A stretch of DNA of 64,000 nucleotides from Hermatobates lingyangjiaoensis. Taxonomy: Eukaryota > Arthropoda > Insecta > Hemiptera > Hermatobatidae. Shown in pieces: positions 655 through 58,984 of the stretch. Position 1 is the first letter of the stretch; every line of letters begins with the position of its first letter. The notes under the pieces were generated by a model. It was not told the DNA's origin and searched no databases. It saw nothing but the letters and a program-made list of their open reading frames with translations. The stretch lies in the NCBI GenBank assembly GCA_026182355.1, contig JAPFBL010000034.1, forward strand, positions 1,054,001 to 1,118,000, read 5' to 3'. A program made the translations under genes and the position numbers.

Positions 655-960
655 TTAAGTCTCCACACGAAAGACTTCATTAGAAAAGTACGAATTTCAA
701 ACTTTGTGTTCATCTTCAAGTTAATCTAAAGTAAAAAACCAAAAACAAAAAATAAGAAATTTTTTGTTCACAGCATTGTAGTTTTCGAGTTGAATATTCA
801 GTTATTTTTTGTTTTTATGTTTTAACCTGAAGATGAACAGAGTGTTCGAAATACGTAGTTTTTCAAATAACTCTTTTGTGTAGTGATTAAATTTTCTTAT
901 TTTATTCTCATTATGAGTAAATACCACACAACACATGATTGCAGTACTCTGAATATAGAA
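655..960. mobile_element. Fold-back PLE-type element with hammerhead-like arms
   Basis: Left arm on the minus strand (about 655-722) and right arm on the plus strand (about 828-960) each carry CTGAAGA-like core, T, GAAC...GTT(C/T), GAA. The right arm ends in GAGTAAATACCACAC then TGATTGCA, the same 3' end as the family-F elements at 30.6 and 58.0 kb. The left-arm core is mutated (TTGAAGA). No clear target duplication was found. Confidence 0.6.
834..860 (+). ncRNA. Hammerhead-like motif, right arm
   Basis: AAC (stem I) - CTGAAGA - T - GAAC/GTTC stem II - GAA - ATACGT (imperfect stem III) - A - GTT (stem I). Stem I AAC/GTT pairs perfectly. One T sits between CTGAAGA and stem II, as in other copies in the window. 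Activity is not shown by sequence. Confidence 0.55.
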
Positions 961-26825: not shown

Positions 26826-26856
26826 GATCAAACCACAATAAGAACTGGGAAAACAA

Positions 26857-26899
26857 GACTAAGATCTTTCAACCATAACAAGCGGTCTTCGTCAGAGTC
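26857..26899 (-). ncRNA. Hammerhead-like motif, family B left arm
   Basis: Minus strand: GACT - CTGACGA - A - GACCG/(T)GGTT stem II - GAA - AGATCT - T - AGTC. Confidence 0.7.
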
Positions 26900-26961
26900 A
26901 AAAACCCAACTGAACCAAGAACCCAACCCAACTAACCAAAATCTAAATCAGTTAGGCTTTT

Positions 26962-27004
26962 GACTCTGACGAAGACCGCTTGTTATCGTTGAAAGGTCTT
27001 AGTC
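26962..27004 (+). ncRNA. Hammerhead-like motif, family B right arm
   Basis: GACT - CTGACGA - A - GACCG... stem II - GAA - AGGTCT (AGATCT in the partner) - T - AGTC. Stem I GACT/AGTC is four perfect pairs. Confidence 0.7.
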
Positions 27005-27058
27005 TTGTTTTCCCATTTCTTATTGTGGTTTGATCATTGATTGTTATTTAATTAAATC

Positions 27059-27130: not shown

Positions 27131-27317
27131 TAAAATATATGTCGTTATCAGCCTTTGGAGCGATTCACTTCTTTTCCTGAAGACGAGGACATCGAAATAT
27201 AGTGGTGAGTTCAGTGGTTTCCTTTCTATGTGTTCTTTTTTAAATTCGAGTTTATATATATATATATATAATAAAATAAAAAACGAAGGAAACACACAGA
27301 AAGACACAGACATAACT

Positions 27318-27355
27318 CACATCGATATTTCGACAATCGTCGTCATCAGGAGGTG
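27318..27355 (-). ncRNA. Hammerhead-like motif, left arm of palindrome
   Basis: Minus strand copy identical in layout to 30014-30051: CACCTC - CTGATGA - C - GAC/GTC - GAA - ATAT - C - GATGTG. Confidence 0.75.
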
Positions 27356-27652
27356 CGAAGAGCGAAGAGCGAAGAGTCCCGCAGGAAGACAGGGCGGTAC
27401 TGAACTCGGAAACCGCAGCCAGTACCCCACCACTTACCACCAAGCGGGGGAAGGGAGGGAAGGAAATGAAGAGCCAAATTAAGACGTAAAAGGAACGAGT
27501 AAAAATTATAACTATAAAAAATTATAAAAAAGTAGATAAATCAAATAAAATTAATAAAAATAATAAATAAAAAGTAAAATAAAAAATAATAAATAAATAA
27601 ATAAAAAATAATAAATAAAAAATAATAAATAAATAAATAAATCATAAATAAA

Positions 27653-28681
27653 TTATCGGTTGAGGTTGAGTCCGGGGGAAGAGCGAGCATCAAGTAAGCA
27701 TATGTATGCCTCCTCTGAAGCTCTTAGGGTAACTTTATTGTTGGATTCGGGGATCTGTTTCAGGATCTGAACCCTGAAACAGTCATTGAAACTGAGTCCA
27801 TGCGAGTTCGCATGGATGGCTACAGGATAGTTACTGCGTTGACCGACTGAAGCCCTATGACCATTCATACGAAGGCTCAACTTATTAGAAGTTAAGCCAA
27901 CGTAAAAGGAGTCACACTGAGTGCAATCCAGTCGGTAAACACAGTTGCTCGAGGTACAGGAGGAATTGACCTGAACCGGGTAGGAACTATGGTGGAGAGG
28001 GGAATCGAAGGAAGGATTAGGATTAACAATCAGGCAAGTTTGACAGCCACGGCGTCCACATTGTTTCATTCCAGGAACAGGATTGGAAGGCTGAGGGGAA
28101 ATATGAGAGAAAATGCTTTTTAGATTGGCAGGTTTACGGTAGGAAATAGAAGGGGGGTGATTAAAGATGGAAGAAGTAGAAGTAGAAGTAGACAGAATCG
28201 GAAAAGACTCCTTAATAACAGCACGAAGCTTATAAGCGCCAGGGAAGTAGGTTGTCAGGAAGAAGGAAGCGTTACTTCTATCCCTCTTGGGTCTGGGTTG
28301 GTGGGAAATGTCAGCCGGTAAAACACGACTATCAATGAAGGAGCGAGGATAGCCTCGTTCAGAAAATTTGTCCTTTAAGAGGTTAAGGTGATGTCTGCGG
28401 TCTTGGAGATTATTGCAGATATTGTGAATACGGAGGGACAAGGATCGAGGTATAGACTTTTTAACATGGGATGGATGGCAACTATTGTAATGGAGGTACT
28501 GTTGGGAGTTGGTGGGTTTTATATGTACGGAAGTCAAGAAGTGTCCATTGTCTAAAGTAACGTCAACGTCAAGAAAGGTGATAAGTCTGTCGGAGATGTC
28601 GTAAGTGAAAGTGATGGAGGGGCAGAAATTTTGAAAGGAGTGTAGGAAAAGTTCTAAGTTATGTTTGCCATGGGGCCAAAT
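27653..28681 (-). CDS. PLE ORF: RT C-terminus with GIY-YIG endonuclease, 5'-truncated
   Basis: An open frame of 350 codons starts at 28705, but the first eight residues come from the opposite arm across the loop. PLE-derived sequence begins at IWPHGK (28681). Residues 9-120 are the RT thumb region (TFLDVDVTLDNG). A cysteine cluster CGRRGCQTC is at 216-224, with further CxxC pairs at 250-264. The GIY-YIG-type nuclease has CVY at 255-257 and FYVG at 267-270, then R279 and a Glu near 331 in ASEEAY. Family members reverse-transcribe their own RNA and nick target DNA with this nuclease. The copy lacks the RT active site, so it is not autonomous, but the nuclease half looks intact. No start codon of its own was kept. 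Confidence 0.9.
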   Translation of the reverse strand: MWPHGKHNLELFLHSFQNFCPSITFTYDISDRLITFLDVDVTLDNGHFLTSVHIKPTNSQQYLHYNSCHPSHVKKSIPRSLSLRIHNICNNLQDRRHHLNLLKDKFSERGYPRSFIDSRVLPADISHQPRPKRDRSNASFFLTTYFPGAYKLRAVIKESFPILSTSTSTSSIFNHPPSISYRKPANLKSIFSHISPQPSNPVPGMKQCGRRGCQTCLIVNPNPSFDSPLHHSSYPVQVNSSCTSSNCVYRLDCTQCDSFYVGLTSNKLSLRMNGHRASVGQRSNYPVAIHANSHGLSFNDCFRVQILKQIPESNNKVTLRASEEAYICLLDARSSPGLNLNR

Positions 28682-28688
28682 TTTCTTC

Positions 28689-29716
28689 ATTTGGCCCCAT
28701 GGCAAACATAACTTAGAACTTTTCCTACACTCCTTTCAAAATTTCTGCCCCTCCATCACTTTCACTTACGACATCTCCGACAGACTTATCACCTTTCTTG
28801 ACGTTGACGTTACTTTAGACAATGGACACTTCTTGACTTCCGTACATATAAAACCCACCAACTCCCAACAGTACCTCCATTACAATAGTTGCCATCCATC
28901 CCATGTTAAAAAGTCTATACCTCGATCCTTGTCCCTCCGTATTCACAATATCTGCAATAATCTCCAAGACCGCAGACATCACCTTAACCTCTTAAAGGAC
29001 AAATTTTCTGAACGAGGCTATCCTCGCTCCTTCATTGATAGTCGTGTTTTACCGGCTGACATCTCCCACCAACCCAGACCCAAGAGGGATAGAAGTAACG
29101 CTTCCTTCTTCCTGACAACCTACTTCCCTGGCGCTTATAAGCTTCGTGCTGTTATTAAGGAGTCTTTTCCGATTCTGTCTACTTCTACTTCTACTTCTTC
29201 CATCTTTAATCACCCCCTTCTATTTCCTACCGTAAACCTGCCAATCTAAAAAGCATTTTCTCTCATATTTCCCCTCAGCCTTCCAATCCTGTTCCTGGAA
29301 TGAAACAATGTGGACGCCGTGGCTGTCAAACTTGCCTGATTGTTAATCCTAATCCTTCCTTCGATTCCCCTCTCCACCATAGTTCCTACCCGGTTCAGGT
29401 CAATTCCTCCTGTACCTCGAGCAACTGTGTTTACCGACTGGATTGCACTCAGTGTGACTCCTTTTACGTTGGCTTAACTTCTAATAAGTTGAGCCTTCGT
29501 ATGAATGGTCATAGGGCTTCAGTCGGTCAACGCAGTAACTATCCTGTAGCCATCCATGCGAACTCGCATGGACTCAGTTTCAATGACTGTTTCAGGGTTC
29601 AGATCCTGAAACAGATCCCCGAATCCAACAATAAAGTTACCCTAAGAGCTTCAGAGGAGGCATACATATGCTTACTTGATGCTCGCTCTTCCCCCGGACT
29701 CAACCTCAACCGATAA
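28689..29716 (+). pseudogene. PLE ORF, right arm, frameshifted
   Basis: The inverted twin of the minus-strand ORF. The frame is open from 28665, then breaks near 29212 where a six-C run has become five, ending at 29249. The remainder is open in another frame (29300-29716) and contains the cysteine cluster and GIY-YIG region unchanged. The single lesion relative to the left arm suggests either a very recent mutation or a sequencing homopolymer error. Confidence 0.88.
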
Positions 29717-30013
29717 TTTATTTATGATTTATTTATTTATTTATTATTTTTTATTTATTATTTTTTATTTATTTATTTATTATTTTTTATTTTACTTTTT
29801 ATTTATTATTTTTATTAATTTTATTTGATTTATCTACTTTTTTATAATTTTTTATAGTTATAATTTTTACTCGTTCCTTTTACGTCTTAATTTGGCTCTT
29901 CATTTCCTTCCCTCCCTTCCCCCGCTTGGTGGTAAGTGGTGGGGTACTGGCTGCGGTTTCCGAGTTCAGTACCGCCCTGTCTTCCTGCGGGACTCTTCGC
30001 TCTTCGCTCTTCG

Positions 30014-30051
30014 CACCTCCTGATGACGACGATTGTCGAAATATCGATGTG
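30014..30051 (+). ncRNA. Hammerhead-like motif, right arm of palindrome
   Basis: CACCTC (30014-30019) - CTGATGA (30020-30026) - C - GAC GATT GTC (30028-30037) - GAA - ATAT (30041-30044) - C - GATGTG (30046-30051). Stem I pairs at five of six positions. It lies downstream of the GIY-YIG ORF, where PLE pLTR ribozymes are known to sit. Confidence 0.78.
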
Positions 30052-30164
30052 AGTTATTTCTGTGTCTTTCTGTGTGTTTCCTTCGTTTTTTATTTTATTG
30101 TAAAAAAGTCCGCTGGACCGTTTCTTTTAATTGTGGTATATATATATATATACATATGTAATGT

Positions 30165-32025: not shown

Positions 32026-32205
32026 TGTATTTAGGTAACAGACCTTCGTTAATACATGCACAGGTAAATTTCTTGCCAATTTAATTTCTCTATGAATGAT
32101 TTTTTTGTATAACTTCTCGAGTTTTCTGATCTGAATTTAAGTGACAGATCAGAAAATTCGAGAAGCTATACCGAAAAATCATTCATAGAGAAATTGTAGG
32201 GTTTT
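32025..32205. repeat. Repeat Y with 50-bp-arm hairpin
   Basis: GTGTATTTAGGTAACAGACC then CTTCGTTAATACATGCACAG recurs at 41822-41885. From about 32085 the sequence AATTTCTCTATGAATGATTT is inverted at 32178-32203, forming a long imperfect hairpin closed around AGATCTGAATTT. No hammerhead-like core. Confidence 0.7.
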
Positions 32206-32306
32206 TGACTCTGACGAAGACCGCTTGTTGCTGCTGAAAGATCTTGTTTTCTCATTTCTTATTGTGGTTTGATCATTGATTGTTATTTCACGTGTTTATT
32301 TGAGGT

Positions 32307-42708: not shown

Positions 42709-42811
42709 CGATATATATATATATATATACAATTAAAAGAAACGGTCCAACGGACTTTTTTACAATAAAATAAAAAATGAAGGAAACACACAGAAAGACA
42801 CAGACATAACT

Positions 42812-42849
42812 CACATCGATATTTCGACAATCGTCGTCATCAGGAGGTG
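42812..42849 (-). ncRNA. Hammerhead-like motif, family A
   Basis: Minus strand: CACCTC - CTGATGA - C - GACGATTGTC - GAA - ATAT - C - GATGTG. Confidence 0.75.
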
Positions 42850-42932
42850 CGAAGAGCGAAGAGTCCCGCAGGAAGACAGGGCGGTACCCTGTCAGTACCG
42901 CCCTGTCTTCCTGCGGGACTCTTCGCTCTTCG

Positions 42933-42970
42933 CACCTCCTGATGACGACGATTGTCGAAATATCGATGTG
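42933..42970 (+). ncRNA. Hammerhead-like motif, family A
   Basis: Same layout as 30014-30051 on the plus strand. Confidence 0.75.
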
Positions 42971-43014
42971 AGTTATGTCTGTGTCTTTCTGTGTGTTTCC
43001 TTCGTTTTTTATTT

Positions 43015-43064: not shown

Positions 43065-43268
43065 TAATAAAAAGATTTCACATAAACAGGTGAAATAACA
43101 ATCAATGATCAAACCACAATATGAAATGGGAAAGCAAGACGAAGATGTTTCAACCATAACAAGCGGTCTTCATCAGTGGTTCGGTTTTGACTCTGACGAA
43201 AACTGTTTGTTACAGTTGAAAGATCTTAGTCTTGTTTTCCCATTTCATATTGTGGTTTGATCATATAT
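43065..43268. mobile_element. Fold-back element, family B
   Basis: Left AATCAATGATCAAACCACAA, right TTGTGGTTTGATCATATA. The right arm core is TTGACTCTGACGAAAACTG, GAAAGATCTTAGTC. Confidence 0.8.
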
Positions 43269-44226: not shown

Positions 44227-44399
44227 GGTTGGCAACAATTGAGGGTCTAACCTGAACTTTGTTGCAACCCTGCTGGAATTTACTTTTGGTTTTACCTTCA
44301 CAAACTGCATTTTCTCTTGATTTACTTGTGTTACACCAGTTATGTTTAGTTTTTTAAAGATTAATTTATTAAATTTCTGTAGATTTTATTAATAGTTTT

Positions 44400-44436
44400 A
44401 ACCTGAAGATGACCAATGTATGGTCGAAAGCTTGTT
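44400..44436 (+). ncRNA. Hammerhead-like motif between PLE C- and N-termini
   Basis: AAC (44400-44402) - CTGAAGA - T - GACCA/TGGTC (five perfect pairs, loop ATGTA) - GAA (44426-44428) - AGCT - T - GTT (44434-44436). Stem I AAC/GTT is perfect. This is the cleanest example and the one best tied to a PLE coding context. Confidence 0.78.
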
Positions 44437-44525
44437 TCTTTTTTAGTGTCTTAGTAATATAATAAAGTTGTGTGTTATTAGTTTTCTTGGTTCACATGTC
44501 TCTGACCCATTATATATAGCAATTA

Positions 44526-45084: not shown

Positions 45085-45240
45085 ATAACCTTAAATTACA
45101 CAAAGCACGACACAGAAAATGGAATAAAAGGCACACGTACAGAATTCTCAATATTTCGAACCGTTGTTCGTCATCAGGAGTAGACTAGAAGAGAGGACGA
45201 AGTGAAGAGAGGACTAGGAGAGAGATCTCCCCACTTCGAA
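45085..45240 (-). mobile_element. Family-I PLE 3' arm
   Basis: Minus strand carries the hammerhead-like motif at 45147-45180, then TTCTGTACGTGTGCC and CACAAAGC. Single arm between (TA)n tracts. Confidence 0.7.
45147..45180 (-). ncRNA. Hammerhead-like motif, family I
   Basis: Minus strand: CTC - CTGATGA - C - GAAC/GTTC (perfect, loop AACG) - GAA - ATAT - T - GAG. Stem I CTC/GAG is perfect. Confidence 0.75.
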
Positions 45241-46998: not shown

Positions 46999-47045
46999 CA
47001 ATATAAACAAAGAAACATAGAGAAATCAAAAGAACACACTTACAG

Positions 47046-47079
47046 TCTCTAATTTTCGGTTTGAACCGTCTTCAGGAGA
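47046..47079 (-). ncRNA. Hammerhead-like motif, family D left arm
   Basis: Minus strand copy of 47195-47228. Confidence 0.7.
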
Positions 47080-47194
47080 GATAAGAGAGGGAAACCAAGC
47101 GCACTGGATCAGAGACGGTTGGAGACCAACCGTCTCCAACTTGGTTGGTCTCCAACCGTCTCTGATCCAGTGCGCTTGGTTTCCCTCTCTTATC

Positions 47195-47228
47195 TCTCCT
47201 GAAGACGGTTCAAACCGAAAATTAGAGA
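47195..47228 (+). ncRNA. Hammerhead-like motif, family D right arm
   Basis: TCTC - CTGAAGA - C - GGTT/AACC (perfect, two-base loop CA) - GAA - AATT - A - GAGA. Stem I TCTC/GAGA is perfect. The two-base loop leaves stem II very small. Confidence 0.7.
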
Positions 47229-47335
47229 CTGTAAGTGTGTTCTTTTGATTTCTCTATGTTTCTTTGTTTATATTGAATTATATTTGTCCGTTTTGGATCG
47301 TATTTCCAACGAAAAAAGTGTATATATATATATTT

Positions 47336-47530
47336 ATATGATCAAACCACAATATGAAATAGGAAAAGAAGAGCTAAGATGTTTCAGCCGTAACAAGAGG
47401 TCTTCGTCAGAGTCAAAAACACAACTGACGAAGACTGCTTGTTACAGTTGAAAGATCTTAGTCATTTTTTTCCTATTTCATATTGTGGTTTGATCATTAA
47501 TTGTTATTTCATCTGTTTATTGTGAAATCT
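47336..47530. mobile_element. Fold-back element, family B
   Basis: Left ATGATCAAACCACAATATGA, right TCATATTGTGGTTTGATCAT and TTGTTATTTCA. The left arm has a full core (minus); the right arm core starts at CTGACGAAGACTGCTTG. Confidence 0.8.
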
Positions 47531-49199: not shown

Positions 49200-49748
49200 T
49201 CTTTTTTTAAAAATATACAACTACGCATATTATGCGTTACAGGCATATGTAGTAATAGATTACACAATGACATCGATGCACATGAGCAAAGAATGAAACC
49301 CACTGGTTCAACTTGTCACTTTGTTTTTTTTTTTTTTTTAAAGTATATTATTGTAATAGTTGATCCCTGGGCCATTTTCTCTTGAGTCGTCTTGGGGGAA
49401 TTCGGGAAGATGAAGAGGAAGCAAGGATTCGTACAAATGGATTTGGGTGAGAGGAAAGGTTGTTGTGAAATGACTTATAACGATCAGAGGCTAGGTTTTG
49501 GATGAATGGAATTTTTAGGTCTTTATGAAGGGTGTAGTTTTTGACGTAATATGGAACATTTGTGATAGTGCAGAGGATTTTAGATTGCAATGATTGTATT
49601 CTATGAATATTGGATGGTTTTGCACAGCCCCATAGTTCAAGTCCGTAAGTCCAGGTCGGTCGCAGTAATGTGTTGTATAGTAGTACTTTGTTATATAGCG
49701 TCAATTTTGAGTGTTCCCTAGAATTATATACAGTAGTAAGAATCATCG
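49200..49748 (-). mobile_element. Jockey-like LINE, 5'-truncated
   Basis: Minus strand. The 132-codon frame (49348-49746) is the C-terminus of a Jockey-clade RT protein: YNTLLRPTWTYGLELWGCAK, IQSLQSKILCTITNVPYYV, LHKDLKIPFIQNLASDRY and PPRRLKRKWPRD. A stop lies just upstream, so the RT catalytic domain is gone. A short 3' UTR follows to about 49200, shared with 11511 and 20105. The C-terminal frame is intact, so the insertion is fairly young. Confidence 0.92.
49348..49746 (-). pseudogene. Jockey RT C-terminal ORF
   Basis: Coding part of the truncated LINE above: the thumb/C-terminal region of a non-LTR reverse transcriptase with the family's typical PTWTYGLELWG motif. Not expected to be functional without the RT core and the endonuclease. 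Confidence 0.9.
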
Positions 49749-49749
49749 T

Positions 49750-50497
49750 TTTAAGTCAAGTCTTGTCGACTAATTTAATAAAAAAAAAAACAACCTTTCA
49801 AAATGGAACAATTCTAAACGGATGTAATTACACATAAATATGCTATTATTTGAGCAATTATCTGAAGTATAACTGCTGAAAAAAATAATAGTAATGTAAA
49901 AAAGTAAACTTTTTAAGCAAGTACACAGTTGACATTTTGGATCCTTTATCCCGTCAATTTTAATATGAGAAGAAATAGAAGCTGTTTTAAAACTCACAGT
50001 TGTATTTCTAACTTGTTTTGAGGGATCTATGGTTTGTAAGCTAAGTGTTGTACTATCATCAACAAGAATTGAGTTAGAAATTTGAATTTCGCTAGTTATA
50101 TTAGTTTCTTTTCTGAAGTATCGAAAACAGAATATTGACTTAAATGAACTTGAGGACGAGATACTGGAGACATCTTGAAGGCCTGTCTCGAGATGTAGAC
50201 ATTAATACAATTAGGTGAGGTCTATAAAGCTTTTAGATGGCATTCAGAGACAGGAACTTGAGAAAATTTAGCTAGTGAAACTATATAAACCTAGTTATTC
50301 AAGTATTGGAGAAGCTTGAAGGACAAGTGAGTTAATTAAAAATGAATAAACTTTAGGAAGGAAGCCCTTTGGTGTAGTGCATCTTGACGTCACAATGAAT
50401 CATGTTATTTCATTTTTTTCTATTATGGTAATATTGTGAGCTTCCATCATCCTCTTTTTAAACTGAATCAATTAATCTGATTGTGAATGTGATTCAG
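49750..50497. other. Probable intron upstream of the MICAL exon
   Basis: AT-rich, no exon recognised. Ends in the acceptor GTGAATGTGATTCAG. Confidence 0.45.
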
Positions 50498-58682: not shown

Positions 58683-58843
58683 CCTGTCGCCATGCATACC
58701 TCCCCCTCCCCTCACTCCTACCTTAGCTTTACTTCCTAAAGTACAGGTGTATTTACAAATACACACAGTATTTGTGTAGACACCGTTCAAATATTTTATT
58801 CTATTTTAACTGTAGTGCATTAGCCTTAATTAATTTTAGTTTA

Positions 58844-58879
58844 TACCTGAGGATGGCGAATGACAGCCGAAAGCTTGTA
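58844..58879 (+). ncRNA. Hammerhead-like motif upstream of PLE N-terminus
   Basis: TAC (58844-58846) - CTGAGGA - T - GGC/GCC - GAA (58869-58871) - AGCT - T - GTA (58877-58879). Stem I is TAC/GTA, where 44400 has AAC/GTT: a compensated pair change within one family. Confidence 0.75.
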
Positions 58880-58984
58880 CGTATTGTTTATTTAGTTTGT
58901 TAATTTAGTGATTAAAACGGCATTTTAAAAAAAGTGATGTATTCAAGTGTTTTCGTGTTTGACCTATGTTTATTCTTTGTGTTA

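What the first reader, a model, noticed from the sequence alone, without database searches (positions are those of the whole stretch)
30014..30051. Hammerhead-like core with a fixed extra base before stem II in every PLE family
Nine or more separate families (834, 13876, 16511, 26962, 30014, 44400, 45147, 47195, 58844 and partners) all read CTGANGA, one extra nucleotide (T, C or A), a stem II, then GAA. The canonical core has stem II directly after CTGANGA. The base varies by family, yet its presence does not, which suggests selection rather than one shared mutation. I do not know whether this variant has been described.
Basis: partly seen in the sequence, partly recalled or inferred. Interest (0 to 1): 0.85.

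Follow-up and report, generated by a model that had tools for sequence, protein, structure and literature searches.

The report
PLE hammerheads with an extra base
This genome holds very many copies of a tiny RNA motif, probably a self-cleaving hammerhead ribozyme of Penelope-like jumping genes, and nearly all counted copies have one unpaired base where textbook hammerheads have none; the ribozyme class is known, but the constancy of the extra base gives a clear, testable question about what it does.

Summary
Confirmed and strengthened. The motif at 30014-30051 reads as a complete minimal type I hammerhead: stem I 30014-30019/30046-30051, CTGATGA, one extra C (30027), 3-bp stem II, GAA, palindromic ATAT for stem III. 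In 264 kb of this 910-Mb genome, the 101 covariance-model hits with E<=0.1 all have a base at the extra position (C 40, A 38, T 22, G 1). Genome-wide, with one stem pattern: spacer 0, 155 copies (control 30); spacer 1, 61,855 (24); spacer 2, 311 (19). Phage contigs show the reverse. Stem II covaries in the spacer-1 register, not in spacer 0. Families with a compensated U3-A8 core (5,107 matches) also fit the spacer-1 pattern; their spacer-0 count did not complete. Two PLE lineages carry the motif at their outer (3') ends. Known already: minimal PLE hammerheads said to cleave as dimers, and an extra base at this position in a viroid hammerhead. I found no statement that PLE hammerheads carry it as a class, but the two key papers were not held. 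T or C could pair with core base G12; A cannot. My reading: an old, length-constrained bulge, perhaps restraining cleavage. Function is unproven.

The parts
30014..30051 (+). Minimal type I hammerhead, C type: stem I 30014-30019 with 30046-30051 (one mismatch), core 30020-30026, extra C 30027, stem II 30028-30030 with 30035-30037, GAA 30038-30040, palindromic ATAT 30041-30044, C17 30045
   Evidence: Read; spacer; model hit 30014-30053, 27.6 bits, E 0.00093
30027..30027 (+). The extra base (position 10) of the named copy
27316..27355 (-). Twin hammerhead at the other end of the inverted PLE duplication
27300..30069 (.). Inverted duplication of a 5'-truncated PLE: 857-nt and 529-nt arm pairs, 100% complementary, 7 nt between the inner arms
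   Evidence: searched only within 27300-30100
27653..28735 (-). PLE coding remnant, open frame of 360 aa, with weak GIY-YIG resemblance in the mirror copy
   Evidence: 17.5 bits, below the 22.6 cut-off; 24 related proteins, best E 2e-88; 11 of 24 with PF00078, one with PF01541
28635..29716 (+). Mirror copy of the PLE coding remnant, in two overlapping frames
821..863 (+). Hammerhead, extra T
   Evidence: 43.8 bits
2127..2171 (-). Hammerhead, extra A
   Evidence: 40.8 bits
13871..13915 (+). Hammerhead, extra T
   Evidence: 41.2 bits
15854..15898 (-). Hammerhead, extra A
   Evidence: 38.8 bits
16508..16556 (+). Hammerhead-like, extra A, weak stem II
   Evidence: 18.9 bits, E 0.079
26960..27006 (+). 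Hammerhead, extra A, decayed copy of the commonest family
   Evidence: 20.4 bits
30808..30852 (+). Hammerhead, extra A
   Evidence: 38.6 bits
39513..39559 (+). Hammerhead of the commonest A-type family
   Evidence: 32.7 bits
42810..42849 (-). Hammerhead, extra C, one arm of a divergent pair
42933..42972 (+). Hammerhead, extra C, other arm of that pair
44397..44441 (+). Hammerhead, extra T, best model hit
   Evidence: 48.6 bits, E 1.8e-08
45142..45183 (-). Hammerhead, extra C, 4-bp stem II
   Evidence: 35.9 bits
47042..47081 (-). Hammerhead, extra C, one arm of a divergent pair
47193..47232 (+). Hammerhead, extra C, other arm of that pair
58841..58884 (+). Hammerhead, extra T
   Evidence: 35.5 bits
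59474..59518 (-). Hammerhead, extra T
   Evidence: 39.4 bits

Best explanation
The motif is the minimal type I hammerhead ribozyme of Penelope-like retroelements, in a form with one unpaired nucleotide between A9 and the first pair (10.1-11.1) of stem II. Many copies have a 4- or 6-nt palindrome as stem III, too short to close on itself, so two copies probably pair through stem III and each supplies the cut site to the other's core. The extra base is most likely an old, length-constrained bulge of PLE hammerheads: its presence is kept while its identity varies (T, C, A, rarely G). As an inference beyond this, it may keep the lone ribozyme slow: U or C there can pair with core base G12. Shown here: sequence, covariation, genome counts, PLE linkage in two lineages. 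Inferred: cleavage, dimer mode, constraint rather than plain inheritance, any restraining role.
For: Spacing fixed: 36 of 37, 32 of 34 in the window, 61,855 against 155 and 311 genome-wide. Base present in 101 of 101 model hits at E<=0.1, though the model was built from spacer-1 copies. Stem II covariation only in this register. Palindromic stem III together with stem I of 3 or more pairs and H17 not G in 20 of 48 distinct motifs against 2.2% in shuffled controls. Compensated U3-A8 cores: 5,107 matches (control 126) against 2,411 (48) for U3 alone; this covariation is described for natural hammerheads (PMC3088659, section 8 read). PLE coding sequence beside C-type copies in the window and beside a T-type, U3-A8 copy in L024. 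A PLE hammerhead of Anolis cleaves, with its protein (PMC11167929, passages).
Against: No cleavage test. No Rfam hammerhead match at any threshold tried. Palindromic stem III alone is not above control: 31 of 48 against 57%, a rule that allows 2-nt palindromes. RNAcofold gave the expected dimer in only part of the cases. The L024 motifs score E 0.55 each. The single-mutant count for A8 and the spacer-0 count for U3-A8 cores did not complete, so the covariation test is incomplete. In the viroid, C at this position is strongly detrimental (PMC3705267, passages), yet C is common here.
Confidence: 0.68

Rival explanations
1. Plain inheritance: one insertion in an ancestral PLE hammerhead, kept because single-base deletions that spread are rare, with no function for the base.
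For: PLE elements share ancestry; identity of the base varies freely, with all four bases seen. X-deleted copies exist among spacer-0 matches.
Against: The spacer stays 1 across many families and two PLE lineages whose proteins match different relatives, while stem II length and sequence change.
Confidence: 0.3
2. The extra base pairs with G12, so that stem II is one pair longer and the drawn core is wrong for most copies.
For: Possible in 13 of 16 representatives; in isolated hairpins the modelled pairing is 0.75-0.94 for C and 0.39-0.45 for U in the 8 sequences tried; C goes with 3-bp stems.
Against: A types cannot pair with G12: 38 of 101 model hits and a family of 62,016 matches, nearly all A in the printed part. 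G12 is a catalytic base of hammerheads (recalled), so such a pair should be inactive.
Confidence: 0.12
3. In T types the extra U makes an AUG with A9 and G10.1 that starts the PLE reading frame, so translation and cleavage compete.
For: [quoted passage not shown] The ATG frame is open through the motif in 31 of 34 typed T-type strings, the other frames in 11 and 25.
Against: C and A types have no AUG there; several T-type copies meet a stop soon after the motif; the copies seen here lie at element ends or are isolated.
Confidence: 0.15
4. The motif is only a conserved structural repeat without ribozyme activity.
For: No Rfam match; no experiment here.
Against: Core letters, stem I, stem III and the U3-A8 compensation fit a hammerhead together.
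Confidence: 0.05

Closest known systems
Minimal type I hammerheads of Penelope-like elements and Terminons (Cervera and De la Pena 2014; Lunse, Weinberg and Breaker 2017; seen here only as titles and through reviews)
   Same: Host element, type I layout, tiny stem III, no obvious loop-loop contacts, dimer mode proposed
   Different: Perhaps nothing: I could not see whether their consensus shows the base between A9 and 10.1
Plus-strand hammerhead of chrysanthemum chlorotic mottle viroid with extra A10 (De la Pena and Flores 2001, through PMC3705267, passages)
   Same: One extra base between A9 and G10.1
   Different: A single viroid case with A; U raises and C and G lower its rate; here T, C and A are all common
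PAc hammerhead of an Anolis PLE (PMC11167929, passages)
   Same: PLE hammerhead; its start codon position suggests an extra U (my inference)
   Different: Tested in vitro and active only with PLE protein; its sequence was not seen
Canonical hammerheads in viral contigs
   Same: CUGANGA, stem II, GAA, A15.1

Membership tests
Hammerhead ribozyme | CUGANGA core and GAA after stem II | tested here: met
   All 16 aligned representatives, chosen by that core; U3-A8 variants counted apart
Hammerhead ribozyme | Stem II supported by covariation | tested here: met
   95.8% of cells paired, covariation 0.670, 0 of 500 shuffles
Hammerhead ribozyme | A15.1-U16.1, H17 and stem I | tested here: met
   Joint test met in 20 of 48 distinct motifs against 2.2% in controls; the other 28 fail at least one part
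Hammerhead ribozyme | Stem II directly adjacent to A9 (consensus form, not required: one or two inserted nucleotides are allowed for in PMC10085705) | tested here: not met
   Spacer 1 in 36 of 37; this marks a variant rather than excluding membership
Hammerhead ribozyme | Self-cleavage 3' of H17 | not testable with these tools
   Needs transcription in vitro
PLE-associated minimal type I hammerhead | Lies in a Penelope-like element | tested here: met
   Window 27300-30069 and L024:920-5143; not shown for the other families
PLE-associated minimal type I hammerhead | Very short stem III and dimer mode | tested here: inconclusive
   Palindromes AGCT, ATAT, AATT, ACGT, ACGCGT, AGATCT, ACATGT read; palindromes alone not above control; cofolds mixed
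CChMVd-type position-10 insertion | One extra base between A9 and G10.1 | tested here: met
   relation by descent to the viroid not tested

The most novel reading that the evidence does not exclude
PLE hammerheads are a separate, old position-10 hammerhead lineage in which the obligatory extra base is a built-in brake: U10 or C10 pairs with G12 and keeps the lone ribozyme silent, and dimerisation or the PLE protein breaks that pair, so that cleavage waits for the assembled retrotransposition complex; C-type families join the strongest brake to the shortest stem II.
Probability: 0.17. Interest if true: 0.8.

Novelty: new variant of a known kind. Interest (0 to 1): 0.5.

Why it matters
A review read in passages calls the role of PLE hammerheads unknown (PMC7761336). 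A one-base bulge, fixed in place and free in identity over the 123,871 matches of two stem patterns, gives one exact position to change. It is also a natural data set on which bases a ribozyme accepts at position 10, set against the viroid result that C and G harm it. The genome is extreme too: 328,252 matches to the core pattern against 30,788 for the reversed control; the largest hammerhead count in the passages I read is 126,247 in axolotl (PMC7229834).

Tried and rejected
Rejected: the spacer-0 reading of stem II; chance. Spacer-0 matches as a canonical family: among the 20 loci fetched several look like copies that lost the base, and a repeat with CTGAAGAGATCCGAAAGATCGAAAC shows no U16.1 or stem I by eye; I left all of them in the 155. 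The G12 pair as a general stem extension is rejected because of A types. Led nowhere or mixed: Rfam, solved structures (no match), RNAcofold dimers, the AUG idea (mild support). Incomplete: counts for CTGANAAN, for TTGANAA at spacer 0 and for the spacer-0 form of the T-ended A family did not complete. Rows dropped before counts: one search needed 4 pairs and score 9; one search needed 3 pairs and score 7.5 and gave 76 of 79 at spacer 1, with overlapping loci L003-L008 counted more than once; one search used the first 101 of 150 aligned hits (170 hits at E<=10), at least one of which (L018:4529-4560) lacks GAA; searches used strings typed from the first printed places only.

Full report
What is there. 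The window is G000:C34:1054001-1118000 of a 910-Mb genome in 1629 contigs. At 30014-30051 the sequence reads as a whole minimal type I hammerhead: CACCTC, CTGATGA, C, GAC GATT GTC, GAA, ATAT, C, GATGTG.

Is it more than chance. A scan that lets the spacer be 0-3 on the 5' side and 0-2 on the 3' side put 36 of 37 good stems (4 or more pairs) at spacer 1,0 in 264 kb; Markov shuffles gave 3 hits in three runs, none at that spacer, and three decoy cores gave 0, 3 and 2. With the same stem classes (GRY paired to RYC) the genome-wide counts are 155 at spacer 0 (control 30), 61,855 at spacer 1 (T 19,223, C 40,721, A 1,244, G 667; controls 9, 4, 9, 2) and 311 at spacer 2 (control 19). By their letters these patterns exclude one another. 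A family whose stem ends in T adds 62,016 matches (control 0).

Covariance model. Sixteen representatives were aligned and modelled. In 264 kb the model gives 170 hits at E<=10. The best 101 (E<=0.1) have C 40, A 38, T 22, G 1 and no gap at the extra position. The model was built from spacer-1 copies and so leans that way; the pattern counts do not. Single-linkage clustering gave 19 clusters with majority T 11, C 6, A 2; one of them mixes 9 T and 6 A.

Which register pairs. On the 16 representatives the spacer-1 helix pairs 95.8% of cells with covariation 0.670, reached by 0 of 500 shuffles; versions slid by 1 to 3 columns reach at most 47.1%. The spacer-0 register pairs 42.5%, and the extra base pairs its would-be partner in 1 of 16. 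The extra base could pair with core base G12 in 13 of 16 (8 U-G, 5 C-G) and cannot in 3 (A); adding that pair leaves 93.2% of cells paired. In isolated hairpins of 8 sequences the modelled pairing with G12 is 0.75, 0.93 and 0.94 for C, 0.39-0.45 for U and 0 for A. An extra C goes with a short stem II (9 distinct motifs: 3 pairs in 7, 4 in 2), T and A with longer ones (33 motifs: 3 pairs in 2, the rest 4-6); Mann-Whitney p 1e-5 and, on typed strings from the genome listings, 5e-7. Related families are not independent, so the p values are too good.

Stems I and III. In 48 distinct motifs, a palindromic stem III with stem I of 3 or more pairs and H17 not G is found in 20, against 2.2% with shuffled downstream sequence; a palindrome alone is found in 31 of 48 against 57%, so it says little by itself under that permissive rule.

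Core compensation. Among 119 model hits, C3-G8 is kept in 102, changed on one side to C-A in 5 and T-G in 5, and on both sides to T-A in 3, two of which are the arms of one duplication. Genome-wide, TTGANAAN before the same stem classes gives 5,107 (control 126) against 2,411 (control 48) for TTGANGAN. The printed places show several families, many in inverted pairs, mostly with T and some with A or C at the extra position. The CTGANAAN count and the spacer-0 form did not complete. Perreault et al. 2011 describe this covariation in natural hammerheads (PMC3088659, section 8 read). I take it as good, though incomplete, evidence that these cores were selected as hammerheads.

Surroundings. The 30014 copy closes one end of a 100% inverted duplication of a 5'-truncated PLE, and its twin at 27316-27355 the other. 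The coding part matches 24 proteins, 11 with a reverse transcriptase domain and one with GIY-YIG, and has a sub-threshold GIY-YIG match itself; the name PLE rests on that combination and on recalled knowledge. In L024 another PLE, whose best matches are other proteins at 24-30% identity, forms a 99.6% inverted duplication with a T-type, U3-A8 motif near each outer end; those two motifs score only E 0.55. Among the best 120 model hits, 58 neighbours lie closer than 400 bp: 26 divergent, 19 convergent, 13 tandem. I infer that the motif marks 3' ends of elements that often insert as inverted, 5'-truncated pairs.

How it may work. I infer dimers from the palindromes, from the title of Lunse et al. 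2017 and from reviews (passages). PAc, a PLE of Anolis, cleaves its RNA only with its protein (PMC11167929, passages). In the viroid CChMVd, A10 lowers the rate moderately, U10 raises it 3-4 fold, and C10 and G10 are strongly detrimental (PMC3705267, passages). C is common here, so either these ribozymes want low intrinsic activity or the dimer changes the effect. That leads to the brake proposal, which is inference.

Novelty. [quoted passage not shown] In the listings and the passages read from them I found no statement that PLE hammerheads as a class carry the extra base, but the two papers that would say so were not held. I guess at even odds that their consensus already shows it.

Noticed in passing
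window 42850-42932, 28639-28731, 32070-32209: Rfam microRNA models match below their gathering scores (E down to 1.5e-7); the first two lie in perfect or near-perfect inverted repeats of PLE copies, so they are probably artefacts of inverted structure.
   Followed up: partly
window 26855-27006, 42810-42972, 43136-43233, 47042-47232, 47370-47465; L012:5547-5642; L017:3057-3171; L022:5317-5437: Many hammerheads stand as close divergent pairs, as if tiny inverted, 5'-truncated element pairs had inserted; the commonest A type does so with only 3-71 nt between the arms in several cases.
   Followed up: partly
L033, L034, L037, L039-L041, L046, L047: A repeat containing CTGAAGAGATCCGAAAGATCGAAAC, often in inverted pairs, has a spacer-0 hammerhead-like core but no visible U16.1 or stem I; what it is remains open.
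   Followed up: partly
window 44397, 13871, 821 and other T-type copies: The extra T makes ATG with A9 and G10.1; the frame is often open through the motif.
   Followed up: partly
window 49348-49755 (-): Open frame that resembles the end of a jockey-like non-LTR reverse transcriptase, by eye and recall only.
   Followed up: no
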